This document shows, piece by piece, positions 1 through 17,871 of a stretch of DNA of 48,326 nucleotides; the first letter of the stretch is position 1; the number at the start of each line of letters is the position of its first letter. The translations under genes were made by a program, and so were the position numbers. The DNA lies in assembly GCA_013349325.1 (NCBI GenBank), contig DUZX01000027.1, forward strand, positions 1 through 48,326, read 5' to 3'. This stretch comes from Desulfuromonadales bacterium. GTDB lineage: Bacteria; Desulfobacterota; Desulfuromonadia; Geobacterales; Pseudopelobacteraceae. The notes under the pieces were generated by a model that saw only the letters and a list, made by a program, of their open reading frames with translations, did not search any database and had not been told where the DNA came from.

Positions 1-1
1 A

Positions 2-109
2 GCGAAAATCGTGGACAAATTCAAAGAACAAAAAACGTTTTTAGTGGGAGAACCAAAACCAAAAGCAGAGACTACCACCTTAAACCCAACGGATTTTTGT
101 CTTGACTAA
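2..109 (+). CDS. C-terminal end of an unidentified protein (cut by window edge)
   Basis: The frame is open from base 2 and ends at TAA 107-109, giving 35 residues that finish in NPTDFCLD. The start lies outside the window. The piece is Lys/Thr-rich, polar and without a recognisable motif. It overlaps the first bases of the zeta-toxin remnant (TTG at 102), an arrangement common for antitoxin-toxin pairs, so it could be the tail of a partner antitoxin, but nothing in the residues proves that. It could also be chance coding. Confidence 0.35.
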   Translation, partial: AKIVDKFKEQKTFLVGEPKPKAETTTLNPTDFCLD

Positions 110-455
110 AGGGTCCACTAAAGCGAAATCATCCGGTTTTTTTGTCAGAGTATTTTTTATTGGAACAGATACACCTGAAATAAATGCTTTGCGTGTGGCG
201 CGGCGAATTTTGGAGGGGGGGCATGAGGTCGCGATTGGAAAAATAATTAAGCGCTACTTTAGTTCAATGCAAATGTGCGTATATGCAGCGGTTCTTTCTG
301 ACCGACTCTATGTGAATGATAACTCTGTCGAAGGCAGTTCTCCGGAGATGTTATTCAGAACTCGTGATGGTAAGTTGTACAAAAAGTATCCAGCTCTGAA
401 TTTGCACAACTGGGCAAAAGAGATACTTAAGCAGTTACGGGGGCTTGATTTATAG
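102..455 (+). pseudogene. Zeta-toxin-like (COG4185) C-terminal remnant
   Basis: The 117-residue product matches the C-terminal half of the COG4185 predicted ATPase/zeta-toxin family as I know it: a GFFVRVFFIGTD strand, the ARRILEGGHEVAIGKIIKRY segment, a DRLYVNDNS motif, then an LLFRTRDGKLYKKYP tail. Full-length members begin with a P-loop kinase domain. Here there is none: the frame is closed by stops at about 42 and 81, and the match begins abruptly after a TTG at 102. I therefore call it a truncated, probably inactive toxin gene. Its TAG stop (453-455) directly abuts the ATG (456) of a broken wzt copy. Alternative: a short expressed protein of unknown role. Confidence 0.65.
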
Positions 456-668
456 ATGTCCACCGTCATCAGCGTAGAAAACCTGGGTAAGAAGTACACT
501 CTTCGCCACCAACAGCGAGAACAGTATGCCGCCCTGCGTGATGTTATTACCAACGGCATTACCAATTTTGGCAAAAAGCTCCTTTCACTCTTCACTATTG
601 ACTCTTCACCTGAACTCGAAGGTTTTTGGGGCTAGAAGGATATGTCCTTCGAGATAAAAGGGGATTAG
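456..668 (+). pseudogene. Truncated 5' copy of wzt (ABC transporter ATPase)
   Basis: Reading from ATG 456, the first 44 codons encode nearly the same peptide as the intact wzt at 2071: 42 of 44 residues agree, with about 11 base differences in 132, mostly synonymous. After a short TTCACTC-type heptad stretch the frame stops at TAG 633-635. Beyond that stop, KDMSFEIKGD still aligns with KDVSFEVKQGD of the intact gene, and a second TAG falls at 666-668. The Walker A region and everything after it are missing. Because the differences are mostly synonymous, the two copies probably diverged as functional genes before this one was lost. It sits between the zeta-toxin remnant and the AlbA_2 gene. 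Confidence 0.85.
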
Positions 669-708
669 CTTTGAATTATGTAACAGATACCCATGTGCTG
701 GTTTGATA

Positions 709-2067
709 ATGACGACAACTGACATATCTGAATTGATAAGAGCCGGTAAGTCCGATACTCTTGAATTAAAGTCTACTTTTGACAGGGAAGCGATTGAATC
801 GTTGACTGCTTTTGCTAATACAACTGGTGGGATCCTTCTGGTTGGTGTTCAGGATTCTGGTGGTGTGACAGGCGTGACAGTTGGAAAAGAGACCGTTCAA
901 AACTGGATTAACCAAATAAAAATGGCTACAACTCCGGCGATTATTCCCGATGTTGAAATTGTTAGTCTTGACGAGAAAAGTATCGTTGTATTTTTTGTTG
1001 CCGCCTTTCCGATCAAGCCGGTTGCCTGCAAAGGGAAATATTTCAGACGCAGTCATGCTGCTAACCATCTCATGTCGCTCAACCAGGTCTCGGATGCATA
1101 TTTGAAGACATTTCAGCTTTCTTGGGATTCATATCAATATCCCGATGCTCAGTTTAAGGACATTGATACTCGAAAACTTTCTCTATTTATTGAAAAAGTA
1201 AACCGAGTAGAACGTTTTCATCTTGATGATGATTATCGGTGTGCCTTGGAAAAATTGCGCCTTATAGAAGGCACCGTCCCAACTAATGCAGCGATGCTGC
1301 TGTTCTCTGCCAATCCTCTTCCTTACAATATCCACATCGGAAGATTTAGCGATTTCGTAACAATACGTGACGATGCACAGATTAGCGACACACTTTCCGA
1401 TGCTTTCAGCAGAACCATGCAGGCGATTGCAAAGCATATAAATATTTCATTCAAGATAAAGGGAATGGAAAGGGAAGAAATCTGGGAATACCCGCAAGTT
1501 GCGGTTCGTGAAGCACTTGCCAATGCAATAGTGCATCGTGACTATCAAAACCCTTCTGATATTCAGATCAAGATATTTGATAACCGGTTGACTATATATA
1601 GCCCTGGACGATTGTATGGCAATCTGACAATAGAGGCGTTACGGCAGGATTCCTATCACTCTGAACTGAGAAACAAGCTTGTTGCCGAGGCATTTTACCT
1701 TACCGGTCTGATTGAAAAATATGGCAGCGGCATAACCCGTATCAGAAAAGCGGTTGCAGAGGCAGGAAACATCGATTTTGTTATGGAAGAGTTGCCTAAT
1801 GGGGTTCTTGTCACGTTTAACAAAAGGGCTGAAGAAATAAATGGCGGAATAACTGGCGGAATAACTGGCGGAATAAATGAGGTGCTTGATTATGTAAATA
1901 TGCACCCAGGTGTTAAAGGAGGAGAGATTTCAGGTAGATTTGGCTTTTCTCAACGGACCTTGGAAAGGCTTTTGAAAGAACTTAAGGAAGGTCGCAAAAT
2001 AATTTTCAAAGGTTCCAAAAAGACTGGTGGTTATTATGCTGTAGAATCCAGCGAGGCATTGGAATAG
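709..2067 (+). CDS. AlbA_2/Schlafen-domain putative ATP-binding transcriptional regulator (COG2865)
   Basis: The protein is about 452 residues. The N-terminus (roughly 1-130) is an AlbA_2/Schlafen-type nucleic-acid-binding domain, seen in LELKSTF and FANTTGGILLVGVQD. The centre carries the GHKL-like ATPase region typical of COG2865 (VREALANAIVHRDY, LTIYSPGRL, EKYGSGITRIRKA). The C-terminus is a winged-helix-like segment (GGEISGRFGFSQRTLERLLKEL). The linker holds three GGI[T/N] units encoded by a 12-bp tandem repeat. ATG 709 is preferred; TTG 703 in the same frame is also possible. No strong ribosome site is visible. The gene lies between the wzt fragment and intact wzt, stopping 3 bases before the wzt ATG, so the two may be co-translated. 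Members are annotated as regulators or RecG-like helicases, but their biology is poorly known. Confidence 0.85.
   Translation: MTTTDISELIRAGKSDTLELKSTFDREAIESLTAFANTTGGILLVGVQDSGGVTGVTVGKETVQNWINQIKMATTPAIIPDVEIVSLDEKSIVVFFVAAFPIKPVACKGKYFRRSHAANHLMSLNQVSDAYLKTFQLSWDSYQYPDAQFKDIDTRKLSLFIEKVNRVERFHLDDDYRCALEKLRLIEGTVPTNAAMLLFSANPLPYNIHIGRFSDFVTIRDDAQISDTLSDAFSRTMQAIAKHINISFKIKGMEREEIWEYPQVAVREALANAIVHRDYQNPSDIQIKIFDNRLTIYSPGRLYGNLTIEALRQDSYHSELRNKLVAEAFYLTGLIEKYGSGITRIRKAVAEAGNIDFVMEELPNGVLVTFNKRAEEINGGITGGITGGINEVLDYVNMHPGVKGGEISGRFGFSQRTLERLLKELKEGRKIIFKGSKKTGGYYAVESSEALE
1843..1878 (+). repeat. Three 12-bp tandem repeats (GGCGGAATAACT type)
   Basis: Three adjacent 12-mers, the last ending AAAT instead of AACT, encode GGIT-GGIT-GGIN in the linker between the ATPase-like and winged-helix parts of the AlbA_2 protein. 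Copy number change would keep frame and only alter linker length. Confidence 0.9.
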
Positions 2068-2070
2068 CCT

Positions 2071-3378
2071 ATGTCCACCGTCATCACTGTCGAAAACCTG
2101 GGAAAGAAGTACACTCTGCGCCACCAACAGCGAGAACAGTATACCGCTTTGCGTGATGTCATAACCAACGGCATTACCAATTTTGGCAAAAAGCTGCTTT
2201 CACCCCTTCGACTCCGCTCAAAGCAGGCCTTCACCACTCACTCTTCACCGACTTCCCCTTCACTATTCACTCTTCACCCTTCACCCGCTTCTGAAGAGTT
2301 CTGGGCCCTGAAGGATGTCTCCTTTGAGGTTAAGCAAGGTGACCGGATAGGTATCATTGGCCGCAATGGTGCTGGTAAATCAACGCTTCTGAAGATACTC
2401 AGCCGCATCACCGAACCAACTACCGGCAGTGTGCGGATCAAGGGGAGGGTGGCGAGCTTGCTGGAGGTAGGCACCGGTTTTCATCCCGAGTTGACCGGCA
2501 GGGAGAACATTTTTCTGAATGGTGCTATCCTGGGAATGGGAAGGGCGGAGATTAAGAAGAAGTTCGATGAAATTGTTGATTTTTCGGAGATTGAGAAGTT
2601 TCTGGATACACCGGTAAAGCGCTACTCTTCCGGGATGTATGTGCGGCTGGCCTTTGCGGTTGCGGCTCATCTGGAACCGGAGATTCTGATTGTGGATGAG
2701 GTTCTGGCGGTTGGTGATGCACAGTTTCAAAAGAAGTGCTTGGGGAAGATGGAGGATGCTGGCACGGAAGGGAGAACAATAATATTTGTAAGCCATAATA
2801 TTCAGTCTATCCGCCAGCTATGCACTTGGGGGATCGTTCTGAAAAACGGCTTTACTCTTGCGATTGATGATATTTCAAAGGTCGTTGATATTTATAAAAG
2901 CGACGTCATTATAGAAAGTAGAAAAACTAATATAGACAATAAACCTGATGCAATACTTAATGCCTGTTTGTTAGATAATCAATTTGAGGATAGTGGATTA
3001 AATTGTCTGGGTTGTGATTTATCCTTACTTATCGATCTTAAACTGACTAGTGAGTGCATTGTGCCACATTTATCAATTGGCCTGTATAATAATTCAGATG
3101 AACTTATTGCTCACGTAATTAATAATGATGAGCCTTTTCATATTCAACATGGAGTAAAAAGTAAAGTAAGTGTAAGAGTAGACTTGTTGAATATAAATCT
3201 CGTACCTGGTGAATATCATATCAATTTATGGCTTGGTGATGGAGAATCTATTGAACTTGACAGATTCGAGAGAGCTTCCCGTTTTCATATTTATCAAGGC
3301 AATACGCTTATAAAGAGATCCTCAAATTATCCAGCACACGCTCGCTGTGTTATCGCGTCAAACTGGAAATATTTTTAA
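2071..3378 (+). CDS. wzt: O-antigen/polysaccharide ABC transporter ATP-binding protein Wzt
   Basis: This 435-residue cytoplasmic ATPase would energise export of an undecaprenyl-linked polysaccharide through a Wzm permease, which is not in the window. Visible motifs are Walker A GRNGAGKST, the signature YSSGMYVRLAFA and Walker B EILIVDEVLAVGD, followed by an H-loop FVSHN. Residues from about 275 onward form a Wzt-C-type beta-sandwich extension, the part that in E. coli O8/O9a reads the modified non-reducing end of the finished chain. Between the first strand and the Walker A lies an unusual Ser/Thr/Pro/His-rich insertion encoded by short repeats. The C-terminal half is clearly more AT-rich than the ATPase half, as is usual for strain-specific carbohydrate recognition. 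ATG 2071 follows the AlbA_2 stop by 3 bases. Confidence 0.95.
   Translation: MSTVITVENLGKKYTLRHQQREQYTALRDVITNGITNFGKKLLSPLRLRSKQAFTTHSSPTSPSLFTLHPSPASEEFWALKDVSFEVKQGDRIGIIGRNGAGKSTLLKILSRITEPTTGSVRIKGRVASLLEVGTGFHPELTGRENIFLNGAILGMGRAEIKKKFDEIVDFSEIEKFLDTPVKRYSSGMYVRLAFAVAAHLEPEILIVDEVLAVGDAQFQKKCLGKMEDAGTEGRTIIFVSHNIQSIRQLCTWGIVLKNGFTLAIDDISKVVDIYKSDVIIESRKTNIDNKPDAILNACLLDNQFEDSGLNCLGCDLSLLIDLKLTSECIVPHLSIGLYNNSDELIAHVINNDEPFHIQHGVKSKVSVRVDLLNINLVPGEYHINLWLGDGESIELDRFERASRFHIYQGNTLIKRSSNYPAHARCVIASNWKYF
2205..2286 (+). repeat. Short-repeat insertion inside wzt (TTCGACTCCGCTCA unit plus TTCACTC heptads)
   Basis: Bases 2205-2229 carry a CCTTCGACTCCGCTCA-type unit that resembles small dispersed repeats I have seen in many bacterial genomes. 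Bases 2230-2286 are roughly eight imperfect heptamers of the form TTCACYN. Both are translated in frame and give the low-complexity linker rich in S, T, P and H. The broken copy at 597-625 has a shorter heptad array at the same point and lacks the first unit. Confidence 0.8.
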
Positions 3379-3407
3379 CGGATTGTTTGCAAGGTGAGCA
3401 CTTAATT

Positions 3408-4352
3408 ATGAATAAAGTAAAAGTCGGTTTTTTAGTTTCTTATGATTATGAGTACCTTAAGACTGCGTTACCATTTATCTATCAAAAGGCAGATTCTGTC
3501 GTTTTAGCATATGATTCCGGGTTCAAAACATGGAATGGTAATAGTTTTGTTATCACGGATGATTTTTTTGAATGGATAAATATGTTCGATACACATAATA
3601 AAATTGTCTTTTATAAAGATAATTTTTGTATGCCGGACTTTACTCCAATGGAGTGTGAAACTCGGGAAAGAAAAATGCTGGCAACTTTTATGGGTGAAGG
3701 GGGATGGCATATACAGCTTGATTCGGATGAATATTTTATAGATTTTGATCGATTCATAGAAATTTTACGAACATTCGAGCATAGCAAACCAGACAGTTCA
3801 TTAGATTTTTTTGCAGATTGGATCACCTTATTCAAATACGATCTAAATGGATATTACATAATTAACTCTTTGGAACAATTTCCTGTTGCTACAAACAATC
3901 CTAGCTATAAAGTGGCGCGATGCTGTCACAATGAAAATATTATCAAAACCCATTGCAGAGTGATTCATCAGAGTTGGGCAAGGACCCCACGGGAAATACA
4001 AAATAAAATATGCAATTGGGGACATTTGACTGATTTTGACATCGATAGCTTTTATAAACTGTGGGAATTTATAGATAGCTTTAACTTTAAATATATAAAA
4101 AACTTCCATCCGATTTACTCCGGTTCATGGCAAGAGTTGATTTATGTAAAATCGAACTCTATAAATAGCCTGATTATTGATTTGAACACCATTTTCGCTC
4201 ATACACCCGATGGAGTTTCAAGCGGTCCTGAAGTCAGTTTTGCAACGATTGACGAACAAAGTGATAAATCTAACATGATAAGCTTTGATTTTGGATTGCG
4301 AGACTTTATCCCACCAATAGTTTTAAAAATTAAATCATTTTTATATAAATAG
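3408..4352 (+). CDS. Glycosyltransferase, GT2-like
   Basis: The product is a 314-residue soluble protein with a GT-A-like N-terminus (VGFLVSYDYEYLKTALPF), a predicted acceptor/nucleotide region around WHIQLDSDEYF that resembles the DxD metal site of glycosyltransferases, and WNGNSFVITDD-type strands between. ATG 3408 is preferred because AAGGTGAG (3391-3398) lies at good distance; a TTG at 3387 is less likely. It is AT-rich like the wzt 3' half, so both may have arrived together. Position between wzt and the large multidomain transferase implies a role in building the exported glycan. Donor sugar and linkage cannot be read from sequence. Confidence 0.7.
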   Translation: MNKVKVGFLVSYDYEYLKTALPFIYQKADSVVLAYDSGFKTWNGNSFVITDDFFEWINMFDTHNKIVFYKDNFCMPDFTPMECETRERKMLATFMGEGGWHIQLDSDEYFIDFDRFIEILRTFEHSKPDSSLDFFADWITLFKYDLNGYYIINSLEQFPVATNNPSYKVARCCHNENIIKTHCRVIHQSWARTPREIQNKICNWGHLTDFDIDSFYKLWEFIDSFNFKYIKNFHPIYSGSWQELIYVKSNSINSLIIDLNTIFAHTPDGVSSGPEVSFATIDEQSDKSNMISFDFGLRDFIPPIVLKIKSFLYK

Positions 4353-4372
4353 ATGCCTAATTGGAAGCAGTA

Positions 4373-7300
4373 ATGAAAACAGGAACAAATACATTATTGA
4401 AAGTCATTCTTCCATTGAGAGAATGTAGGCTTTGGCTCCGTAACCCAAAATCACAAGTCATCCGCTATGTTAAATGGTTTTACTTTCGATATAGCAGTTT
4501 ATCTATAAGTGATAAAACCAAATACGCACATTGGCTGTTTTTGACAAAATATTTTCCTTGGATTTTGAATGCACTTAATAATCCGACTATTGCAAAACCT
4601 TTAAGGTTTGCTGCTGCGGTACAAAAAGCGGACGTTGATGATTTTGTTCATGATAAGTGCGCGTTGAAGCTGAACTGTTCAGACAAGCCCGCCGTTTCTG
4701 TCATCATCCCGGTTTATGGCAATTGCGATTATACCCTGAGATGTCTTGCTTCGATCGCATTTAGCCCGCCTTACGTTCCATTTGAAGTAATAGTGATCGA
4801 TGATTGTTCCCCCGATGATTCACATTCTATACTTTCCTGTATTAAAGATATCAAGTTGTTGACCAATTCATCCAATCAGGGTTTCATCCGCTCCTGCAAC
4901 AGTGGCGCCCAGGCTGCTTTTGGCGAGTATCTCTGTTTTCTCAATAATGACACCGAAGTTACGCAGGGGTGGCTGGATGAACTATACGGGACGTTTCACG
5001 AGTTTCCTGGTACGGGTTTGTCCGGATCCAAGCTGGTGTATCCTGATGGCAGGCTGCAGGAAGCTGGCGGTATAATATGGCAAGACGGGTCTGCATGGAA
5101 TTTTGGTCATAATCAAGATCAATTACGTCCTGATCTTAATTACGCCCGGGAAGTGGATTACTGCTCCGGTGCTTCAATAATGGTTCCCAAAGCCCTTTTT
5201 GAAAAGCTGGGAGGATTTGATGAACATTATTTGCCGGCGTATTGCGAAGACTCCGACTTGGCGCTGAAAATTCGCGAAAACGGACTTAGAGTGATTTATC
5301 AGCCACTATCGGTCGTAATTCATTATGAAGGCGTGACATCGGGCAGGGATGTCACGAAAGGGGTTAAGTCCTATCAAGTTGAAAACAACAAAAAACTATA
5401 TAACCGCTGGAAGGAAAGACTGTGGCATCACCAAAAGCATGGAGTGGATGCTGATAATGCAAAAGACCGCATGGCCAGGCATCGTGTTTTGATTTTGGAT
5501 CACTGCACTCCGACACCAAATCAGGATGCTGGTTCTGTCACCGTATTCAATTTGATGCTTCTATTGCGCGAAATGGATTTTCAGGTGACATTTATCCCTG
5601 AGGGAGAATATTTATATTTGCCAGAGTACACTCCTGCCCTGCAAAGAGCTGGTATCGAAGTGCTCTACTCGCCATATTGCAGATATGTTGAACAGCATTT
5701 AAAGAAAACAGGCAAGCGTTATGATCTTGTTTTTATGTTTCGTCCCGCAGTTGTCGAACACCATATCAAGTCGATCCGTAAATATTGTCCGAAGACAAAG
5801 ACTCTTTTCCATACCGTTGATCTGCACTATTTGAGATTGTCTCGAGAGGCGGATTTGCATGATGATGAACTAAAGAGAAAAGCCGCCGCTGAAATGAAGC
5901 AGAGAGAACTTACCGCCATTCGAGCTGTTGACGCTTCTATCGTTCACAGTACAACAGAAATGGAGATATTACGTAGCGAGCTGTCTCATGAAACTGTCTT
6001 TGTTTTTCCTTTAATATTGAATATTCGAAGTACAAAAACAGGTTTTGGTGAACGGCGGGACCTGGTTTTTGTTGGCGGTTTTCAGCATCCTCCGAATGTA
6101 GACGCTGTTAAGTTCTTTATTAAGGATATAATGCCTATAGTGCGTGAACGTTTGCCGGGAGTACGGTTTTATGCAGTCGGGAGTAAACCTCCTGAAGAAC
6201 TTTACACTCTTCAGGCTGCCGACGTCGTAATAACCGGATTTGTTGAAGACCTTGATAGTCTTCTAGATAAAATGCGCATATCGCTTGCTCCGTTGCGTTA
6301 TGGCGCAGGCATCAAGGGCAAAATCGGTACGGCCATGTCAGCGGGCTTGCCTACAGTTGCTACGAGGATGGCTGCTGAGGGGATGTCGCTTACTAATGGT
6401 AAAAATGTTCTTATTGCTGATGGTACATCGGATTTTGCCGAGGCGATTGTACGGCTCTATGGGGATGAGACGCTTTGGGCTTCATTGCGTGATAATGGAT
6501 TGGCTTTTGCTGAAAAAAACTGGGGAGCGTGTGCCGCCTATGAGATTTTGAATTTCATACTTACAAATTTGGGAATTGATGTACCCAAAACGCCCAGATA
6601 TTCATTGCGTCTCTTCGAGGGGGGCAAACCGGACCAGCATTGTTTGCCATTTTATGACAGAGTCTTCATAGACGGCAATCAACTTAAAGTTAGGGCAGAG
6701 GCGTTTAGTAATTTTCTTGAAAAAGCAAAGAAGCGTATTGGTTCCTCGTTTCCCTGGTATCCATACGGGACACTCAATAATTTTGTACATTTGGAGCAAT
6801 GTTTTAATGCATTTCCCCTCCACAGATTGACTTCGACAAGGCATGTTGCCGATATAGGCGCTGCCGATGGAGACTTGGCATTTTTTATGAGCTCCCTGGG
6901 ATATACAGTTGATATTATAGATAATGGCCCTACTAATTATAATGGGTTAGAGGGAGCCCGCATTCTTGCGGAAGCATTAGATGCTGGCTCAAAGGTCAGT
7001 ATTTTCGAAAGAGATATTGATGGTCAGTTTTTTCTTCCCAACGAGAAATATGATCTGATTTTTCTCTTGGGAATATTGTATCACCTCAAAAATCCTTATT
7101 TAATCCTTGAGGCAATCAGCAAGAGGTCGACGCACTTGATTCTTAGCACAAGAGTTGCCAAATACACGCCGGCCGGAAAAAAAATATCCGGCTCTCCTGT
7201 AGCTTATCTGCTTAATCCGGATGAATCGAATAATGATTCGACAAATTACTGGATTTTTACGGAGTATTGTCTTGAAAGAATAGTCAGACGTTCCGGATGG

Positions 7301-7405: not shown

Positions 7406-7473
7406 GCATTTCGTTCTCCCAGGTAGTGTGTTACCGCAACGTGACATCTGCACAGAGTTAAGAGGGTTTGCTT

Positions 7474-9347: not shown

Positions 9348-9359
9348 ATCGAGAACGAT

Positions 9360-10391
9360 ATGACAAAAATTATACGTGCGCGAGCCCCACTCCGGCTTGG
9401 CTTGGCTGGTGGCGGCTCCGATGTTTCGCCATATTGTGATGTTCATGGTGGTTATGTCCTCAACGCGACCATAGACCGCTATGCCTATACTGTAATCAAA
9501 TCGTTGAATGAACCTTGTATCCGTTTTAAATCAACCGATCAACAGAAGGAAGAAGTATATCCTTTGTCGGAGTATCTGGAATTGGACGGAAAACTTGACC
9601 TTCACAAAGCAGTCTATAACGAGATTGTCCGGAAGTATAACGAGGGAAAACCTATAGCGCTTGAGATGAGCACTTTTTGCGATGCGCCCGTAGGTTCTGG
9701 CCTGGGTTCATCTTCAACGCTTGTGGTCGTTATGATTTGCGCCTTTGCCGAGTTGCTCAATCTACCGCTTGATGATTACACCATTGCGAGTATCGCCTAC
9801 AAGACCGAACGTATCGACGCCGGCTTGCAGGGGGGGCGGCAGGATCAGTATTCAGCCACATTCGGTGGCTTCAACTTCATGGAATTTTATGCTAACGATC
9901 ACGCTATCGTTAACCCGCTCCGAATTAAGGAGTGGATAATATGTGAGCTGGAAGCTTCGTTGGTTTTGTTTTACACCGGTGTATCCAGGGAGTCCGCAAA
10001 GATAATTGCCGATCAGAGTGACAATATGAAAACTGGTGACAATGACGCTATAGAGGCAATGCATGGTATTAAACGTGAAGCGCTGACCATGAAAGAATGT
10101 CTGCTCAGAGGCAATTTTGAAGGTATTGTCTCATCAATGCGCGAAGGATGGGAGAATAAGAAACGTTCGGCCTCGACGGTTTCCAATCCGCTGATTGATA
10201 AAATTTACAATACTGCCATTCATGCAGGGGCTTTGGCTGGTAAAGTTTCAGGCGCCGGGGGAGGAGGCTTTATGATGTTCTTTGTGCCGCCGGATAAACG
10301 TATGGACGTGGTTCGCGCCTTGCATGGTTTTGAAGGCCAGGTCAGTAATTGCCATTTTACGAGCAACGGCGCTCAGGCATGGCGGGTATAG
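9360..10391 (+). CDS. hddA: D-glycero-alpha-D-manno-heptose 7-phosphate kinase
   Basis: This 343-residue GHMP-family kinase would phosphorylate C1 of D-glycero-alpha-D-manno-heptose 7-phosphate on the route to GDP-heptose. It shows an N-terminal RAPLRLGLAGGGSDV, the ATP-binding APVGSGLGSSSTL motif 2 and a C-terminal KVSGAGGGGFMMFF motif 3; QGGRQDQYSATFGGFN is typical of HddA and its relatives such as FKP/L-fucokinase-like kinases. Length fits the family. It is followed after one base by hddC, which supports the heptose assignment. The sedoheptulose-7-phosphate isomerase (GmhA) and the phosphatase (GmhB) needed for the full pathway are not in this window. Confidence 0.9.
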   Translation: MTKIIRARAPLRLGLAGGGSDVSPYCDVHGGYVLNATIDRYAYTVIKSLNEPCIRFKSTDQQKEEVYPLSEYLELDGKLDLHKAVYNEIVRKYNEGKPIALEMSTFCDAPVGSGLGSSSTLVVVMICAFAELLNLPLDDYTIASIAYKTERIDAGLQGGRQDQYSATFGGFNFMEFYANDHAIVNPLRIKEWIICELEASLVLFYTGVSRESAKIIADQSDNMKTGDNDAIEAMHGIKREALTMKECLLRGNFEGIVSSMREGWENKKRSASTVSNPLIDKIYNTAIHAGALAGKVSGAGGGGFMMFFVPPDKRMDVVRALHGFEGQVSNCHFTSNGAQAWRV

Positions 10392-10392
10392 T

Positions 10393-11106: not shown

Positions 11107-11124
11107 CATTGACAGTACAATCCC

Positions 11125-12120
11125 ATGACTAATAACAATATATCTGTTGTTATTGTTACTTATGATGATAGGTGGCAATATTTATACCGAGTCCTGGAGC
11201 ACCTTGAGTACAATTCATATGTTTCCAGAGTTGTGCTTATTGATAATGCTTCGAAATATAGTGTTGCAGACAGATGCTGCGAGTCTTTATTCAAAAAAGT
11301 TTCTATACATCGCAACGAATCAAATTTGGGTTCTGCCGGTGGTTTTTCAAAAGGCATATCTTTAGCTTGCGAAAAAAATGATTCACTTATTTTGTTGCTG
11401 GATGATGACAACCTTCCTCGTCCCGGTTCTATCAAAGGGTTGATTGATACATACAACGACCTTACTGAAAATAGAAGTTACAAAAATATTGCAGTACTGG
11501 CTTTTAGAGAAAATCTGCATGCTAATTTCAAAATACCGAAAAAACCTGTATTCATGCACGGAAAGGATTTTCTATGTTTTAATATCTTTAATGCCATTCA
11601 ACGGCATTTAAAGCTGATCAAGTTCGAAAGTATCCAGCACTCAGGTCCTGAATACGCAGTAATATCAGGAGGGATTGCATACAGTGGCATAATGTTCTCT
11701 CCCGGACTTGTCTTAGATATTGGCTTGCCAAATAGCGATTTCATTTTGTATTTCGATGATTTTGAATATTCGATTCGGATGCTCAAGAGTGGTTATACCA
11801 TTTGGCTCGACAGGGAAAACAGTGTGGACGATATCCTTGAGAATTATTCGGCGAGCGCCTACCAGATACCTTTTTGGGGTTTCTGGTTAGCTGACTCTGA
11901 CAGTAAGATTTATTACAACATCAGAAACAGGGTATATCTGGACCATTTTTTGGATAGTAAAATTTCATTGCCGTATTTACTAAACAGAACCATTTTTTTA
12001 TTTGTCTTCTCTCTAATCTGCCTATTAACATTCAGACTAAAGAGATTAAAGACTTTTTTTGATGCATGCCATGATGGAAAGAATGGACATCTTGGTTTAA
12101 ATAATGGTTACCCTTTATGA
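11125..12120 (+). CDS. Glycosyltransferase family 2 (possible galactofuranosyltransferase-like)
   Basis: The 331-residue protein starts ISVVIVTYDDRWQYL, has VVLIDNASKYS, NLGSAGGFSKGI and the metal-binding LLLDDDNLPRPGS, then YFDDFEYSIRMLKSG. The NLGxAGGF...DDD pattern resembles GlfT-type galactofuranosyltransferases and relatives, and a UDP-Galp mutase lies downstream, so a galactofuranose donor is a reasonable inference but not proven. Residues around 290-310 are hydrophobic (FLFVFSLICLL), suggesting membrane association near the C-terminus. Its TGA overlaps the next ATG (ATGA). Confidence 0.75.
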   Translation: MTNNNISVVIVTYDDRWQYLYRVLEHLEYNSYVSRVVLIDNASKYSVADRCCESLFKKVSIHRNESNLGSAGGFSKGISLACEKNDSLILLLDDDNLPRPGSIKGLIDTYNDLTENRSYKNIAVLAFRENLHANFKIPKKPVFMHGKDFLCFNIFNAIQRHLKLIKFESIQHSGPEYAVISGGIAYSGIMFSPGLVLDIGLPNSDFILYFDDFEYSIRMLKSGYTIWLDRENSVDDILENYSASAYQIPFWGFWLADSDSKIYYNIRNRVYLDHFLDSKISLPYLLNRTIFLFVFSLICLLTFRLKRLKTFFDACHDGKNGHLGLNNGYPL

Positions 12121-13577
12121 CGAACATAAGTCTGGATGTAGTCAAAGTCACCATTATTATTGTCACCTGGAACAAGCGTGACGATGTCCTTAACCTTCTC
12201 GATTCCCTGCAATCAATTGCCTCTCCCAATGTAACAATCGTAGTAATTGACAATGCCTCCTCAGACGGTTCAGTTGCAGCAATTCGTGATCGCTCCCTTC
12301 CTGTGACACTTATCGAAAATTCAGAAAATCTTGGAGGTACCGGAGGTTTCAATACCGGTATCAGGTACGCACTCAATAACCTTTATCAGGACTATATCTG
12401 GCTACTGGACAACGATGCCGAGGTAAAACCGGATACCCTTGATAAGCTTGTTTCAGTCATGGAAGCAGACGGTTCTGTCGGCATTGCCGGATCTTGCATA
12501 CTTGACACAATAGATCGCGGCTTGATTGTTGAGGCCGGCGGTCATATTGATGAACGATCTGCTACCTGGAAACCACATCTCCGCTATAAGTTACATTCCT
12601 TATATATCGGCTCTCCAGCGATAGATGTGGACTATGTTCCTGCATGCTCGGCTCTTGTCCGAAGGGAGTTGTTTGACGTTATCGGAATAATGGACGAGCG
12701 CTACTTTCTGCATTGGGATGATGTTGATTTCGGAAGGACTGCAACGAAAGCTGGATTCAGGGTTGTGGCGGTACTGGATTCGATGGTGCATCATGGTACT
12801 GAAAAAGGATACAGCAATACAGTTTTGTACTTTGATGTACGGAATTCTCTGCTCTTCCTTGCAAAACATCTTTCGATAGGTAAGCGTGTTCTTCCCATGT
12901 TCAGGGCTTGTCTGCGGAGTATTATGGCTTCAAAGCTGTTCGAATTGTCGGGAGAAAAAATGCTCTCATGGTATCTCCGTCAGGCGGTGGAAAATTTTTC
13001 CGCAGGTCGTTTCGGGTCCGCACCGCTAATACCAGACCAACTTAACTCGTTGAGTAACAAAAATACCGATTTCGCTCTATGCACCGCAGGGGCAAAGAGT
13101 TTTGTGCTGTTTGCCGTTGGCTGTTATGCCGATGTTGTTGGGGCAGCCAGCGTGATTCGCTCTTCGTACCCAACGGTATCTATTACTCTGGCGGCTCCCT
13201 CGGACAGGCTCGAGGTCTACAAGTCTTGCGAGGCGATCAATGACTTTATCAGCTATGATCTGGCCAGAGACGGGCTTTGGGGGAGTCTCAATTTCGTTTT
13301 GAACTTACTGCGGTTAAGGTTTGATTGTGCTGTCACAGCCGGAACTGGTTTTGTGGTGCCGTTTGCATTTTTTGTTCGTCGGAACATTGTCATTTCGGAT
13401 GGCGGCAGGTTGGTGCAAGAATCAAAAATATCTCTTGGATCATTTTGGAAGCTGCCCTGTGCAGTTGTTTCAGGTTTTTTTATAACGTTGCCAATATTTT
13501 TGAAATGCTGGATGGCTGGCCGAAAAATGTCAAATTCCAGCCGGCCTGATTCAGGAATAGCACGGAAAACCACATGA
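12117..13577 (+). CDS. GT2 glycosyltransferase with an extra C-terminal Rossmann-like region
   Basis: The first ~300 of 486 residues are a GT2 domain: VTIIIVTWNKRDDVLNLLDSL, VVIDNASSDGS, NLGGTGGFNTGI, WLLDNDAEVKPD (metal site) and HWDDVDFGRTATKAG. Residues about 318-470 do not belong to GT2. They read like the N-terminal half of a GT9 heptosyltransferase fold (a VLFAVGCYADVVGAASVIRS loop, then YPTVSITLAAPSD and a hydrophobic segment near the end), without a matching donor-binding half. The start codon overlaps the previous stop. The stop TGA overlaps the ATG (13574) of a broken mutase copy, suggesting an operon in which a mutase originally followed directly. Confidence 0.75.
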   Translation: MTNISLDVVKVTIIIVTWNKRDDVLNLLDSLQSIASPNVTIVVIDNASSDGSVAAIRDRSLPVTLIENSENLGGTGGFNTGIRYALNNLYQDYIWLLDNDAEVKPDTLDKLVSVMEADGSVGIAGSCILDTIDRGLIVEAGGHIDERSATWKPHLRYKLHSLYIGSPAIDVDYVPACSALVRRELFDVIGIMDERYFLHWDDVDFGRTATKAGFRVVAVLDSMVHHGTEKGYSNTVLYFDVRNSLLFLAKHLSIGKRVLPMFRACLRSIMASKLFELSGEKMLSWYLRQAVENFSAGRFGSAPLIPDQLNSLSNKNTDFALCTAGAKSFVLFAVGCYADVVGAASVIRSSYPTVSITLAAPSDRLEVYKSCEAINDFISYDLARDGLWGSLNFVLNLLRLRFDCAVTAGTGFVVPFAFFVRRNIVISDGGRLVQESKISLGSFWKLPCAVVSGFFITLPIFLKCWMAGRKMSNSSRPDSGIARKTT

Positions 13578-13753
13578 TTTTATCCCGCATCCTATCCACG
13601 TCCACACTCAGTCTTGGCGCTGCTTGTCATCTCGATAAACTTGGACACTCCGATTGGCGAATTTTTGAACGAAAAACCACCTTAATTTGGTTTTCCGACT
13701 ATTTTTCATCAATAAGCCAAAAAGACTTGACTATTATGCAAGGCGTGAAATAA
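13574..13753 (+). pseudogene. Remnant A of a UDP-galactopyranose mutase 5' end
   Basis: Starting at ATG 13574 (ATGA overlap with the upstream GT), the frame contains LGAACHLDKLGHSDWRIFER, which aligns with LGAAYQLNKLGHTNWQIFER of the intact mutase at 16501. The preceding glycine-rich FAD loop is scrambled (ILSTSTLS instead of IIIGAGPTG), and similarity ends near 13681 where the upstream region of the first ATPase begins. The frame runs on to TAA 13751-13753 without resemblance. Identity to the intact gene is only moderate, so this is the relic of a diverged mutase, not a fresh duplication. Confidence 0.75.
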
Positions 13754-13760
13754 TAGTCGG
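13695..13760 (+). promoter_or_regulatory. Inverted repeat flanking the ATPase 1 promoter region
   Basis: CCGACTATT (13695-13703) and AATAGTCGG (13752-13760) are a perfect 9-bp inverted repeat. The right arm ends one base before ATG 13762, and 48 bases separate the arms. A TTGACT (13727-13732) between the arms could be a -35 element. The layout suggests an autoregulatory operator or structured leader for the ATPase gene. Confidence 0.6.
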
Positions 13761-13761
13761 A

Positions 13762-14895
13762 ATGAAACGATACCTCTTCGAAAATATTCGCTCAGACCTT
13801 ACCAAGAAAATGGTGCTGCTTACTGGTCCCCGGCAGGTTGGCAAGACGACTCTGGCAAAGGAGCTGATGGCTGGCTACCACCGCCCTCAGTACCTGAATT
13901 GGGATGTTAACGATGACCGTCGCCTTATACGTGCTCAAAGCTGGAGTCCACGGGCTGATATGCTTGTGTTTGATGAAATACACAAGATGCCAGACTGGAA
14001 GGCTTTTTTAAAGGGTGTTTTTGATGGCAGGAGTGATGGGCAAGCCATATTGGTGACAGGAAGTGCCAGAATGGAGACATTTCGCCAATCTGGTGATTCC
14101 CTAGCCGGTCGTTATTTTCATGCGAGGCTTCACCCCTTTTCAGTGCGTGAATGGGTCATGCTGAGCGATGCCAAGCCAGATGATGCTCTTGATCGTCTGA
14201 TTGAAAGAGGTGGATTGCCGGAACCTTTTCTTGTATCAGAAAAAAGTGAGGCTGAACGCTGGCGGCGGCAATACTTTACCGATCTGGTTCGTGAAGATGT
14301 GTTGGAATTTTCCAGAATTCAGGAAGTCCGGACGATGCGCTTACTGGTAGACCTGCTTCGTGGGCGTGTCGGTTCGCCACTATCCATTGCTTCACTTGCC
14401 AGAGATCTGCAGGCGGCTCCAAATACGGTGAGCAAATACCTTGATATTCTTGAAGCTCTCTATGTCATTTTTCTGGTGCGCCCTTATCACCGCAATATTG
14501 CCAGAGCGATCCTGAAAGAACCAAAGGTCTATTTTTTTGATACCGGTTATGTCCTTGGCGATAGTGGGATCAAGTGGGAAAATGCGTGTGCAACGATGTT
14601 ACTTAAGCACAGCAATTATCAGCAGGATGTTTTTGGTATAGATTCGAGCCTGCACTATATACGAACAAAAGATGGCGCTGAAGTTGATTTTGTATTGTGC
14701 GAAGCTGGTAGTCCGTCTTTACTTATTGAATGCAAACATGCAGACAATCGGCCAGGTTCCTCGCTTATCAAGTTTGCTGAACTCTTCCCAAATGCGCAGA
14801 CAATCCAGTTGGTACGCGAACTGCGTCAGGAGGAGTACCGCAATCATGTATCAATTTTATCAGGGGCGAAGTGGCTGGCAGAGCTTAAGGCGTGA
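13762..14895 (+). CDS. AAA+ ATPase with DUF4143 C-terminus (ATPase 1)
   Basis: The 377-residue protein has Walker A LTGPRQVGKTTLAKEL, Walker B-like MLVFDEIHKMPDWK, sensor-type ILVTGSARMETF and the SLAGRYFHARLHPFS segment typical of this P-loop family. A winged-helix stretch with SLARDLQAAPNTVSKYLDIL follows, then a DUF4143-like domain ending in a PD-(D/E)xK-like strand (GAEVDFVLCE...LIECK). ATG 13762 is preferred over farther-upstream starts because conservation begins at MKRYLFENI and the inverted repeat sits directly before it. These ATPases are common in genomes rich in mobile DNA but have no settled function. The gene sits between two broken mutase 5' ends. Confidence 0.85.
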   Translation: MKRYLFENIRSDLTKKMVLLTGPRQVGKTTLAKELMAGYHRPQYLNWDVNDDRRLIRAQSWSPRADMLVFDEIHKMPDWKAFLKGVFDGRSDGQAILVTGSARMETFRQSGDSLAGRYFHARLHPFSVREWVMLSDAKPDDALDRLIERGGLPEPFLVSEKSEAERWRRQYFTDLVREDVLEFSRIQEVRTMRLLVDLLRGRVGSPLSIASLARDLQAAPNTVSKYLDILEALYVIFLVRPYHRNIARAILKEPKVYFFDTGYVLGDSGIKWENACATMLLKHSNYQQDVFGIDSSLHYIRTKDGAEVDFVLCEAGSPSLLIECKHADNRPGSSLIKFAELFPNAQTIQLVRELRQEEYRNHVSILSGAKWLAELKA

Positions 14896-14940
14896 AGTAT
14901 GTTTTCGGGTTCCCGCAAATAACGCCTGAATGGAGTTTTA

Positions 14941-15006
14941 GTGCATAAAATCCTCATCATTGGCGCATGCCCTTGTGGTCTGGGAGTCGCCTGTCATCTT
15001 GAGGGG
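14941..15006 (+). pseudogene. Remnant B of a UDP-galactopyranose mutase 5' end
   Basis: GTG 14941, preceded by a TGGAG at 14931-14935, opens a frame reading MHKILIIGACPCGLGVACHLE, which aligns with the FAD-loop start of the intact mutase (MKFIIIGAGPTGLGAAYQLN). The glycine motif is damaged (GACPCG). Similarity ends near 15006, and the frame drifts on to a stop at 15144 inside the next gene. ACHL is shared with remnant A but not with the intact mutase, so A and B appear to descend from one older mutase type. Confidence 0.75.
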
Positions 15007-15040
15007 ATTCGGGGGACAACATATAGCTCTCAAATTTATT

Positions 15041-15066
15041 GGTTGAAAATCAACCACCAAGTGGTT
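15041..15066 (+). promoter_or_regulatory. Nested palindromes upstream of ATPase 2
   Basis: GGTTGA (15041-15046) pairs with TCAACC (15050-15055), and AACCAC (15052-15057) pairs with GTGGTT (15061-15066). Three GGTTG-like half-sites thus overlap within 26 bp, 11 bases before ATG 15078 and next to an AATATA (15067-15072) that could be a -10 box. This looks like an operator for self-repression. Confidence 0.6.
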
Positions 15067-15077
15067 AATATACCGCC

Positions 15078-16361
15078 ATGCTATCAAGAAATATTACCCC
15101 TAAAATTATTGAAGCTCTTTCTGACACTCCAGTCGTTATGCTGAATGGAGCGAGACAGACCGGCAAGAGTACTCTGGCAAAAGCTCTCATAAGCGAAAAG
15201 CATATTGATCGCTATGTTACTCTGGACGATGCTTCCGTGCTTGCTGCGGCGAAGCACGATCCGGTTGGGTTTCTTTCCGGTTTGGGTGAATCTGTAGTAA
15301 TCGACGAGATTCAGCGTGCGCCGGAACTTTTTGTTGCTATCAAGGCTGATGTTGATCGTAATCGTAAGCCCGGGCGTTATCTGCTTACCGGGTCGGCAAA
15401 CGTACTTCTTCTGCCGCGCCTTTCGGAATCTCTGGCTGGCAGAATGGAGATTTTTACCTTATGGCCGCTTTCCCAAGGCGAGTTTTCAGGTGTCAGGGAA
15501 CAATTTATTGATGTCCTGTTTTCTGAGAATATACCCTCTCAGGTACTGACTACTGGCGATAATGATGCAACCTTGAACGAAAGAGCCATACGGGGAGGAT
15601 ACCCGGAGGTTGCTGCAAGAACTTCAGAATCACGTCGACGTGCCTGGTTCGAATCCTATATCACAACTATTTTACAGCGTGATGTGCGTGACATAGCACA
15701 TATTGACGGTCTTACTGCAATGCCGCGTCTCCTTGCCATGCTTGCAACCAGATCCCCGTCGCTGCTTAATTATTCAGAACTTTCACGGACAACCGGTCTT
15801 CCGCAAAGCACCTTGAAACGCTACATGACTCTTTTTGAAACGATTTTTCTGATTGATCATCTTCCTGCCTGGTATTCAAACCTTGGGAAAAGAGTTGTTA
15901 AAACCGCAAAGCTGGTAATGTGTGATTCCGGATTGTTGTCAACATTGCTTGCTGTTGATGCCTTCAGGTTGGAAAACACCCCGCTATGCGGAGCAGTTGT
16001 GGAGAACTTTGTGATAGTGGAGCTGAAAAAACAGATTTCATGGAGTGACACAAAACCTGCGATGCACCATTTTCGCACTCAGGCAGGTCAGGAGGTTGAT
16101 GTTGTTCTTGAAGATCGTGCCGGAAGGGTTGTCGGTATAGAAATTAAATCTGCAAAGAGTGTTGGCGGGCAGGATTTCAGGGGTCTTCAATCACTTGCTG
16201 ATGCTTCCGGAGACCAGTTTCTCAGAGGCATTGTGTTGTATGGTGGTAGTGATATTGTACCTTTCGGCAGCAAATTTCTCGCTATGCCAATCGACTCTAT
16301 GTGGAACATGGAGTCGATGGAACGTTTACCGAAGAAAATGGTCGATCATCAGCTTATCTGA
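15078..16361 (+). CDS. AAA+ ATPase with DUF4143 C-terminus (ATPase 2)
   Basis: The 427-residue protein begins MLSRNITPKIIEALSD, with Walker A LNGARQTGKSTLAKAL, Walker B-like SVVIDEIQRAPELF, sensor YLLTGSANVLLLPRL, and the ESLAGRMEIFTLWPLSQGE segment. A helix-turn-helix-like LSRTTGLPQSTLKRYMTLFE and DUF4143 follow, ending in GQEVDVVLED...VVGIEIKSAK, which resembles a PD-(D/E)xK core. It is a different subfamily from ATPase 1: the sequences are only broadly similar and the upstream palindromes are unrelated. ATG 15078 is directly downstream of those palindromes. No partner gene is adjacent; the intact mutase follows after 139 bases. Function unknown. Confidence 0.85.
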   Translation: MLSRNITPKIIEALSDTPVVMLNGARQTGKSTLAKALISEKHIDRYVTLDDASVLAAAKHDPVGFLSGLGESVVIDEIQRAPELFVAIKADVDRNRKPGRYLLTGSANVLLLPRLSESLAGRMEIFTLWPLSQGEFSGVREQFIDVLFSENIPSQVLTTGDNDATLNERAIRGGYPEVAARTSESRRRAWFESYITTILQRDVRDIAHIDGLTAMPRLLAMLATRSPSLLNYSELSRTTGLPQSTLKRYMTLFETIFLIDHLPAWYSNLGKRVVKTAKLVMCDSGLLSTLLAVDAFRLENTPLCGAVVENFVIVELKKQISWSDTKPAMHHFRTQAGQEVDVVLEDRAGRVVGIEIKSAKSVGGQDFRGLQSLADASGDQFLRGIVLYGGSDIVPFGSKFLAMPIDSMWNMESMERLPKKMVDHQLI

Positions 16362-16500
16362 GGGTATGTCGTACGGCTGCATCTGAAATAACTCTTTTAC
16401 TATCTCTCGCCGCCAAATACTTTGGTGGATGACGCTGATGGGGGAATGTAGAAAATCATCATTAAATTCGACGAGGTAATGCGGAAAGGTTCGGTACTTC

Positions 16501-17871
16501 TTGAAATTCATCATCATCGGCGCCGGCCCCACCGGCCTGGGCGCCGCCTATCAGCTCAACAAGCTTGGTCACACCAACTGGCAGATATTTGAACGCAGCG
16601 ACCACGTCGGCGGACTGGCCGCTTCATCTCTCGATGATAATAACTTTACCTGGGATATTGGCGGCCATGTTCTCTTCTCCCATTATGACTATTTCGATAA
16701 AGCGGTAGCCGAAGCCCTTGGAGATCAGTATTTCGAGCACCAGCGCGAAAGCTGGATCCGCATCCTGCAGCGCTGGGTGCCGTATCCGTTCCAGAACAAT
16801 GTCAGATATCTTCCGGATGACGCGCTTCGTGAATGCGTTTTCGGTTTACGTGAATTATCCGGTACATCCAATACAACCTCCAATTTCCGAGAATGGATGG
16901 ATATTGTCTTTGGTCGCGGTATCGTCAAATATTTTATGGAACCGTATAACCGCAAAGTGTGGGGCGTTCCGCTGGAAACAATGAGTAAATCATGGATCGC
17001 TGAGCGGGTGAGTCTGGTCGATCTGGCCCGCATTGAACGAAATATTACGGAAGAGCTGGATGATTTAAGCTGGGGACCGAATAACGTCTTCACGTTCCCG
17101 AAATATGGTGGTACGGGTGCCATATATGAAGGTATTGCCAAGCCAATGCGTGAAAAAATCAATCTACAGCATGAGATGACTGAGATAGACTTGGACCAAA
17201 AGACGGTGACTTTTTCTCATGGCCTGATCGAACGGTATGATGTTCTGATTACTACGTCTCCGCTCGACCTGTTAGTGTCAAAGTGTCGCGTGGTTCCGGA
17301 GCGAATTTCAGACGCTGCAAAAGATCTGGTCCATAACAGCGGCCTGATAGTCGGGCTTGGTTTTGAAGGCCGGCGGGATGACTCGAAATGCTGGATGTAT
17401 TTTCCTGAAAGCAGCGCTCCGTTCTACCGTGTAACCAACTTTCACAACTATTCGCGGTTTAACGTCCCTGCTGGAGATACAGAACGATATTTCTCCTTGA
17501 TGTGCGAAACTACCTATTCATCCTGCAAGCCGGAAAACAAGAGCACTATCGTAGAAGAAACACTGCAAGGGCTTGTAAACAGCGGCATGATTGACGAAGA
17601 TCAGAAAAATCGTCTGGCTAGTCGCCATCTGATTGATATTCCCTATTCCTATCCGGTGCCGACACTGGGGCGGGATAGAGCACTTGCCACAATTCAGCCA
17701 TTCCTTGAATCACACTCCGTCTACTCCCGGGGGCGTTTCGGCGCCTGGAAATATGAGGTCGGCAACATGGATCACTCTTTTATGCAGGGGGTCGAGGTCG
17801 TAGAGCGCCTGCTGAAAGGAACCGAAGAGCGCACGTTTGAAGATCCCCTCAGCGCACAGTCCGTCCGGTAA
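16501..17871 (+). CDS. UDP-galactopyranose mutase, eukaryotic-like type
   Basis: The 456-residue FAD protein would convert UDP-Galp to UDP-Galf for galactofuranose-containing glycans. It has an N-terminal FAD loop IIGAGPTGLGAA, then WDIGGHVLFSHYDYFD (residues about 51-66), WVPYPFQNNVRYLP, FMEPYNRKVWGVP, WGPNNVFTFPKYGGTG, CWMYFPESSAPFYR and RGRFGAWKYEVGNMDHSFM. These blocks recall the Aspergillus-type mutase (GGHVIFSHYKYFD, WVPYPFQNN, KVWAVP, RGRFGSW) much more than the ~370-residue bacterial Glf. This recognition is from memory. TTG 16501 is the start: an in-frame TAA lies at 16477-16479, and AAGG at 16486-16489 precedes it. A generic FAD amine-oxidase-like annotation would be the alternative. 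Confidence 0.8.
   Translation: MKFIIIGAGPTGLGAAYQLNKLGHTNWQIFERSDHVGGLAASSLDDNNFTWDIGGHVLFSHYDYFDKAVAEALGDQYFEHQRESWIRILQRWVPYPFQNNVRYLPDDALRECVFGLRELSGTSNTTSNFREWMDIVFGRGIVKYFMEPYNRKVWGVPLETMSKSWIAERVSLVDLARIERNITEELDDLSWGPNNVFTFPKYGGTGAIYEGIAKPMREKINLQHEMTEIDLDQKTVTFSHGLIERYDVLITTSPLDLLVSKCRVVPERISDAAKDLVHNSGLIVGLGFEGRRDDSKCWMYFPESSAPFYRVTNFHNYSRFNVPAGDTERYFSLMCETTYSSCKPENKSTIVEETLQGLVNSGMIDEDQKNRLASRHLIDIPYSYPVPTLGRDRALATIQPFLESHSVYSRGRFGAWKYEVGNMDHSFMQGVEVVERLLKGTEERTFEDPLSAQSVR

What the first reader, a model, noticed from the sequence alone, without database searches (positions are those of the whole stretch)
1..17871. Recurring module: accessory gene plus replacement 5' end at polysaccharide genes
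Two unrelated host genes (wzt and the mutase) and two unrelated cargo families (AlbA_2 and DUF4143 ATPases) show the same layout: old 5' fragment, cargo, intact host gene. No transposase or integrase is visible. One model is that cargo spreads by recombination at gene starts and brings a substitute 5' end so the host gene survives, much as islands restore a tRNA 3' end. The alternative is repeated O-antigen cassette exchange leaving scars near selfish genes. Either would explain how these orphan ATPases spread.
Basis: inference. Interest (0 to 1): 0.78.

Follow-up and report, generated by a model that had tools for sequence, protein, structure and literature searches.

The report
Defence genes carrying replacement gene ends
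Small bacterial defence-type genes are found wedged into the end of an ordinary gene, with the old gene end left as a stub on one side and a replacement end on the other, a scar that suggests how one of the commonest candidate phage-defence genes moves between bacteria.

Summary
The layout is real and recurs. In the window an AlbA_2 gene sits between a wzt 5' stub and intact wzt (122/133 bases alike), and two DUF4143 genes each follow a 5' stub of the mutase-like gene. Two more DUF4143 genes in this genome show it (62/66 and 70/99). In the family sample 20 of 133 DUF4143/AlbA_2 genes have flanking repeats against 3 of 361 control genes, though by hand only 10 of the 20 are gene ends. Gene 3' ends are used too (hipA, asnB, radical SAM), so gene starts and polysaccharide loci are not required. 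Relatives keep the native gene order without cargo at three of four 5' loci. Pooled over the 5' cases, stub and new end differ mainly at silent sites (41 of 75; duplicate-then-decay predicts 27.8); the pooled 3' cases do not (19 of 45; 17.1). One mutase stub is closer to 9 of 13 other genomes' genes than to its own. Best reading: recombination imported the cargo together with a neighbouring gene end. DUF4143 is PDC-S01, a very common but mostly unvalidated defence candidate that moves as a bare gene. Closest known: long target duplications around restriction-modification genes. No donor was found.

The parts
102..455 (+). C-terminal remnant of a P-loop kinase gene (zeta-like, label recalled), the native left neighbour of wzt
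   Evidence: 82% over 321 bases to the gene directly upstream of wzt in G031, 71% over 340 in G062
456..588 (+). old 5' end of wzt (stub), decaying on to about 662
   Evidence: 122/133 to 2071-2203; alignment to relatives continues to 662
703..2067 (+). cargo 1: SLFN_AlbA_2 + HATPase_c_4 gene
   Evidence: Pfam 66.7 and 74.4 bits
2071..3378 (+). intact wzt-like ABC ATPase gene; start codon 3 bases after the cargo stop; bases 2071-2203 are the second copy of the 5' end
12117..13577 (+). glycosyltransferase, native left neighbour of the mutase-like gene
   Evidence: Pfam; same order without cargo in G057
13599..13671 (+). first stub of the mutase-like gene 5' end
   Evidence: 53/73
13687..14895 (+). 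cargo 2: DUF4143 gene (PDC-S01); start probably the ATG at 13762 (inference)
   Evidence: Pfam DUF4143 101.5 bits, PDC-S01 191.1 bits; homologue at another locus in G057, DNA match 13691-14900
14947..14999 (+). second stub of the mutase-like gene 5' end
   Evidence: 39/53; 9 of 13 other genomes' genes score higher against it than the intact gene at 16501 does, 2 tie
15078..16361 (+). cargo 3: DUF4143 gene (PDC-S01)
   Evidence: Pfam DUF4143 144.6 bits, PDC-S01 545.5 bits; also upstream of the same gene in G031 and G062
16501..17871 (+). intact mutase-like FAD oxidoreductase gene
   Evidence: Pfam Amino_oxidase 56.5 bits; NCBIfam matches below cut-off
17912..19352 (+). AbiEi/AbiEii pair beside the module; no flanking repeat found around AbiEii

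Best explanation
A defence-type gene arrives from another lineage on DNA that also carries the adjoining end of a host gene. One junction forms by recombination within that homologous gene; the other forms by illegitimate joining inside the recipient's copy of the same gene. The recipient's own gene end is left as a stub on the far side of the cargo, and the gene goes on with the imported end, so it survives and the insertion is tolerated. Shown: stub, cargo and second end; stub in native gene order at three of four 5' loci; excess of silent differences in the pooled 5' cases; cargo related to other genomes' copies more than to each other. Inferred: the recombination pathway and the existence of donors. 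It works like homology-facilitated illegitimate recombination.
For: Recurrence: 5 of 25 cargo genes against 0 of 158 control ORFs in own-genome stretches; 20 of 133 against 3 of 361 in the family sample; protein level 15 of 301 probes against 1 of 567, nine of the 15 (eight loci) being gene ends by hand; Fisher tests. Native order without cargo: kinase-wzt in G031 and G062, GT-mutase in G057, upstream ORF-GT in G058. Imported end: five 5' comparisons pooled, 41 silent of 75 differences, null 27.8 +/- 3.7, reached in 0 of 2000 simulations. A Mg-chelatase-family 3' end around a nucleotidyltransferase-HepT pair: 34 of 46 differences at third positions, 32 silent, null 17.4 +/- 3.1, 0 of 1000. Stubs closer to other genomes than to their own gene: second mutase stub 9 of 13, first 3 of 13, sugar-transferase stub 5 of 21 (scores). 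Repeats that stop at the gene edge, matches in 30 bases inside/outside: wzt 27/8, L387 25/5, L139 23/7, L150 26/6, L033 21/13. G000 DUF4143 copies are at most 52% alike (18 compared), yet 10 of 18 have a 76-92% relative among the fetched loci of other genomes.
Against: No donor with the same new end was found. Taken singly, only wzt (p 0.0075) and the first mutase stub (0.0435) fall below 0.05 in the silent-site test; second mutase stub 0.46, GT 0.29, sugar transferase 0.08. The six pooled 3' cases do not reject duplicate-then-decay (19 silent of 45, null 17.1, p 0.33), nor do L158 and L116 at full length. The wzt stub is far closer to its own gene (92%) than to any of the 27 fetched relatives that align (79% at best), and the GT stub is closest to its own gene (62/66; best relative 59/66), as duplication would give. 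Repeats at asnB (L126, 29/26) and the kinase (L116) run past the stop codon; L111 is intermediate (26/15). By hand 10 of 20 repeat-positive cargo genes are intergenic, dispersed or unclear. No crossover was seen in the mutase-like gene. On rechecking I lowered this confidence from 0.60 to 0.57, because the sugar-transferase and first-stub comparisons are weaker than first written.
Confidence: 0.57

Rival explanations
1. True insertion with long target duplication: the gene inserts itself and copies 50-500 bases of target, as proposed for restriction-modification genes; later mutation separates the copies.
For: Same anatomy and repeat size as described in print (passages). The wzt and GT stubs are closest to their own genes. 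Pooled 3' cases fit it. L116 (498/513) and L158 (229/239) are near identical.
Against: The pooled 5' cases and the Mg-chelatase case carry too many silent differences. The second mutase stub is closer to 9 of 13 other genomes' genes than to its neighbour. Several repeats stop at the start or stop codon.
Confidence: 0.25
2. Ordinary exchange of multi-gene polysaccharide cassettes leaves gene stubs, and defence genes merely travel along.
For: All four 5' targets are polysaccharide-type genes. The same sugar transferase lies near related DUF4143 genes in G055 and G059.
Against: 3' cases lie at hipA, asnB, radical-SAM and kinase genes. The DNA shared by related DUF4143 genes is usually one gene with its promoter (70 of 225 pairs printed). 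None of 158 control ORFs in the own-genome stretches has such a repeat, but that control can miss stubs left by larger cassettes.
Confidence: 0.12
3. The DUF4143 protein, an ATPase with a PD-(D/E)XK-like domain, cuts cargo-free alleles and drives its own copying, like a free-standing homing endonuclease; gene ends are co-converted.
For: E339, D341 and K357 and the Walker residues are invariant in 18 of 18 aligned sequences. The unit is a bare gene. Copies are numerous (19 matches in this genome).
Against: An AlbA_2 gene and a nucleotidyltransferase-HepT pair are bracketed by gene-end repeats without this protein in between; HipA and AbiEii loci also carry flanking repeats. I saw no common target sequence.
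Confidence: 0.06

Closest known systems
Insertion with long target duplication of restriction-modification genes (Nobusato 2000, Furuta 2010; known here only through passages of PMC3874152 and PMC3031569)
   Same: Defence genes, no transposase, flanking direct repeats of the order of 100 bases
   Different: Other gene families; in the pooled 5' cases the copies differ mostly at silent sites and several stop at gene ends, so the second end looks imported rather than duplicated
Homology-facilitated illegitimate recombination, as proposed for T6SS effector displacement in Vibrio (PMC5361080, passages)
   Same: One homologous arm, one illegitimate junction, recipient remnants displaced beside the new module, repeatable at one locus
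   Different: Cargo is a solitary defence-type gene next to an unrelated host gene, at 5' or 3' ends
Islands that restore the end of a tRNA or protein gene (recalled)
   Same: Host gene receives a substitute end and stays intact
   Different: No integrase seen, no fixed attachment sequence, divergent repeats of variable length

Membership tests
PDC-S01 candidate defence gene | Match to the PADLOC PDC-S01 profiles | tested here: met
   545.5 and 191.1 bits for the two window genes
PDC-S01 candidate defence gene | ATPase fused to a PD-(D/E)XK-superfamily domain | tested here: met
   Walker residues and E339, D341, K357 invariant in 18 of 18, E355 in 90% or more; AlphaFold model pLDDT 86.8; best PDB match an archaeal AAA+ ATPase (E 1e-6, TM 0.44), Card1 only weakly. 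The nuclease assignment rests on the motif and on passages of PMC12988326
PDC-S01 candidate defence gene | Protection against phage | not testable with these tools
   No assay; [quoted passage not shown]
Insertion with long target duplication | Direct repeats of order 100 bases around a defence gene, no transposase seen | tested here: met
Insertion with long target duplication | Uninterrupted site in a relative | tested here: met
   wzt in G031/G062, mutase-like gene in G057, GT in G058; not found for the sugar transferase, not sought for the 3' cases
Insertion with long target duplication | The two repeats derive from one target sequence | tested here: not met
   Pooled 5' cases: 41 silent of 75, 0 of 2000 simulations; second mutase stub; Mg-chelatase pair. 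Not rejected for GT, L158, L116 and the pooled 3' cases
Homology-facilitated illegitimate recombination | One junction homologous, the other without homology | tested here: inconclusive
   Fits the anatomy; no donor sequence found, so neither junction was seen directly
Transposon or insertion sequence | Terminal inverted repeats, fixed ends, transposase | tested here: not met
   Related copies usually share only about -40..-90 to near the stop codon; palindromes were found in the upstream 80 bases, and no downstream partner was seen in the printed ends
tRNA-type genomic island | Linked integrase and att sequence | tested here: not met
   No integrase among the scanned window proteins; repeats differ between loci

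The most novel reading that the evidence does not exclude
PDC-S01 and similar solitary defence genes form a class of minimal mobile unit (operator plus one gene) that spreads between species by carrying a substitute end of whatever gene it adjoins, perhaps helped by the cargo's own nuclease domain.
Probability: 0.15. Interest if true: 0.82.

Novelty: new variant of a known kind. Interest (0 to 1): 0.62.

Why it matters
PDC-S01 is reported as the fourth most common defence system in prokaryotes (PMC12988326 passage), and my searches showed no account of how it gets into genomes. A scar that survives in the sequence makes the route testable: the stub tells where the cargo went in, and the silent-site test tells whether the gene end was imported or duplicated. 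It also gives another reading of the long target duplications reported for restriction-modification genes, and suggests that some defence genes arrive with a patch for the gene they land in.

Tried and rejected
Duplication in place is disfavoured for the mutase-like gene (second stub closer to 9 of 13, first to 3 of 13 other genomes) and weakly for the sugar transferase (5 of 21). A transposon with fixed ends was rejected. Intragenomic transposition was rejected: G000 copies are at most 52% alike. A G031/G062-like donor for the second DUF4143 gene was not supported: no stub there, the intergenic DNA differs, and the 5' end is not closer to them. A mosaic point in the mutase-like gene was sought without success (13 of 15 intended genomes recovered). 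Codirectional cargo and host is not special: upstream neighbours are codirectional in 139 of 174 cases anyway. L360 was dropped: no DNA repeat, only an HTH similarity. L319 is tandem DUF4143. L112, L374, L358, L350 and L318 score but look low-complexity, dispersed or unclear. L031, L090 and L106 are unclear. L105 (two genes), L119, L148, L156 and L128 look intergenic or dispersed. Of the 3 controls, L105 and L119 carry the same repeat families as cargo hits; L157 was not examined. One of the 11 controls is the hipA gene of L150, which is also the L272 gene. In one search one HipA and three AbiEii loci gave no usable ORF. The scan of own-genome stretches found 11 repeat pairs, 4 of them around a DUF4143/AlbA_2 gene (3 loci); the other 7 are REP-like, paralogous or unclear, or bracket toxin-antitoxin genes.
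Full report
The observation. The window holds the described layout. wzt (2071-3378) starts three bases after the stop of an AlbA_2 gene (703-2067), and its first 133 bases recur at 456-588 at 122/133. The mutase-like gene (16501-17871) has two 5' stubs, each followed by its own DUF4143 gene: 13599-13671 (53/73) and 14947-14999 (39/53). All three scores exceed every one of 300 shuffles. A whole-genome search with the wzt stub found only these two places. The order is stub, DUF4143, stub, DUF4143, gene, which suggests two events at one gene start.

Beyond the window. This genome has 19 DUF4143, 4 AlbA_2 and 2 AbiEii matches. I fetched 19 stretches around those outside the window and compared 700 bases on either side of 25 cargo genes. 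Five scored 20 or more against 0 of 158 other ORFs of 250 residues or more: wzt's AlbA_2, the second window DUF4143 gene, a glycosyltransferase case (62/66, L029), a sugar-transferase case (70/99, L033) and a weak internal match (26/32, L031) that I do not count. The first window DUF4143 gene scored only 13 in this test, because the next gene after it is the second stub.

Family sample. In 60 genomes 55 have DUF4143. I fetched 80 regions from the printed part of that capped list, plus 29 AlbA_2 loci. Over 129 loci (1.08 Mb, own genome included), 17 of 101 DUF4143 and 3 of 32 AlbA_2 genes score 20 or more against 3 of 361 controls (p 1e-9); 7 of 140 cargo ORFs were too short or too near an end. 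With 1400-base flanks the figures are 19 of 97 and 1 of 6 against 11 of 288. By hand 10 of the 20 are gene ends: four of 5' type (wzt, mutase-like, glycosyltransferase, sugar transferase) and six of 3' type, where the intact gene faces one side of the cargo and a 3' stub lies on the other: two hipA genes (L111, L150), a radical-SAM gene (L139), asnB (L126), a polysaccharide epimerase with AlbA_2 cargo (L158) and a phosphotransferase-family kinase (L116). The other ten are intergenic, dispersed or unclear. A protein-level search of the facing 80 residues gave 15 of 301 probes at 60 or more against 1 of 567 control probes; nine of the 15, at eight loci, are gene ends by hand.

Other cargo. HipA (5 of 29) and AbiEii (4 of 26) loci also score 20 or more with 1400-base flanks; the 11 of 288 controls had stricter flank limits, so the match is not exact. 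Two HipA repeats (L272, L281) look like tRNA 3' ends (recalled, not tested); the AbiEii repeats were not resolved into gene ends. A scan of own-genome stretches that did not start from cargo found a Mg-chelatase-family gene end repeated around a nucleotidyltransferase-HepT pair, and a YecR-like gene repeated around HepT, nucleotidyltransferase and DUF4143 genes. In the first, the longer copy is itself only a 176-residue remnant, so there no host gene was shown to survive.

Native context. Relatives carry the left neighbour and the host gene side by side without cargo: kinase-wzt in G031 and G062, glycosyltransferase-mutase in G057, upstream ORF-glycosyltransferase in G058. So the stub is in the old place, and the cargo plus the second end are the newcomers. 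For the sugar transferase no such relative was found among 21 fetched loci. For the 3' cases this was not tested.

Imported or duplicated. I simulated a duplication after which the gene copy evolves under constraint (omega 0.1) and the stub freely; about 37% of differences should then be silent. The five 5' comparisons pooled show 41 silent of 75 against 27.8 +/- 3.7, reached in 0 of 2000 simulations. Singly: wzt 9 of 11, p 0.0075; first mutase stub 10 of 19, 0.04; second 6 of 14, 0.46; glycosyltransferase 2 of 3, 0.29; sugar transferase 14 of 28, 0.08. The Mg-chelatase pair shows 32 silent of 46 against 17.4 +/- 3.1. The six pooled 3' comparisons do not reject decay (19 of 45 against 17.1, p 0.33), nor do L158 and L116 at full length. 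The second mutase stub aligns better to 9 of 13 other genomes' genes than to its own neighbour, with 2 ties; the first stub to 3 of 13 with 1 tie. The sugar-transferase stub scores higher with 5 of 21 fetched relatives than with its own neighbour (best 72/96 against 70/99). For wzt (92% against at most 79% over 27 fetched relatives) and the glycosyltransferase (62/66 against at most 59/66) the own gene is the closest, so a close donor or a duplication both fit. Matches in 30 bases inside and outside the gene edge are 27/8 (wzt), 21/13 (L033), 25/5 (L387), 23/7 (L139), 26/6 (L150), 26/15 (L111) and 29/26 (asnB); the ungapped count is uninformative for the second mutase stub and L029 (15/11, 12/10), which have indels.

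What moves. Among the 70 most similar DUF4143/AlbA_2 pairs printed (of 225), related genes in different genomes usually share DNA only from about 40-90 bases before the start to about the stop codon; some pairs share more and several of those are the same locus. Of 99 DUF4143 upstream regions 25 hold a palindrome scoring 10 or more against 0.6% of shuffles and 2 of 99 more distant windows, probably an operator. The unit is thus a promoter plus one gene. Copies within this genome are at most 52% alike, while 10 of 18 have a 76-92% relative in the fetched loci of other genomes, which points to arrival from outside.

What the cargo is. Both window DUF4143 proteins match PADLOC PDC-S01 (545.5 and 191.1 bits). 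Walker residues and E339, D341 and K357 are invariant in 18 of 18 and E355 nearly so. The model (pLDDT 86.8) matches an archaeal AAA+ ATPase best by Foldseek (E 1e-6, TM 0.44), then Avs5, with Card1 weakly. PMC12988326 (passages) calls PDC-S01 the fourth most common defence system, a single gene with ATPase and PD-(D/E)XK domains; it says validation is pending for most such candidates. The AlbA_2 protein matches no PADLOC profile except parts of argonaute-related ones.

Comparison with the known. Kobayashi and colleagues described restriction-modification genes inserting with long, variable target duplications (passages of PMC3874152 and PMC3031569; the original papers were not read, PMC2853133 is not held). 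Homology-facilitated illegitimate recombination was proposed for serial T6SS effector displacement (PMC5361080 passages). The present case has the first anatomy and, in the pooled 5' cases, a sequence signature that suits the second. I found no paper on DUF4143 insertion: one paper holds the word (not opened), three hold PDC-S01 (two read in passages, one not opened).

Limits. A single-gene test cannot see stubs left by larger cassettes, so the contrast with controls may partly reflect that defence genes travel alone. Hand classification was not blind. One genome per species was available, so no fresh insertion was seen, and no donor was identified.

Noticed in passing
upstream of DUF4143 genes, e.g. 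L126, L081, L114, L139, L112: Large palindromes (arms to 24 bases) within 80 bases of the start in 25 of 99 DUF4143 genes, sequence differing between subfamilies; probable autoregulatory operators.
   Followed up: partly
L029 11313-11365: The DNA just before the intact glycosyltransferase resembles the promoter region of the DUF4143 gene (9973-10025; 72% over 53 bases): the replacement end may carry a DUF4143-type promoter.
   Followed up: no
L028 5490-6935: Two diverged copies of a Mg-chelatase-family gene 3' end bracket a nucleotidyltransferase-HepT pair, with a DUF4143 gene directly beyond the shorter copy.
   Followed up: partly
L036 6485-10188: A YecR-like lipoprotein gene is repeated (492 bases, 92%) around HepT, nucleotidyltransferase and DUF4143 genes.
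   Followed up: no
L272 301-391 and 2392-2492; L281: HipA genes flanked by repeats that look like a tRNA 3' end (recalled; no tRNA search run). The L272 gene is the hipA gene of L150.
   Followed up: no
window 1-122: Dispersed repeat at the contig end, identical at G000:C56:1-123 and 84-91% alike in several relatives; it cuts the kinase gene upstream of wzt.
   Followed up: no
L033, L115 (G055), L105 (G059): Related DUF4143 genes lie near the same sugar-transferase gene in three genomes in different arrangements.
   Followed up: partly
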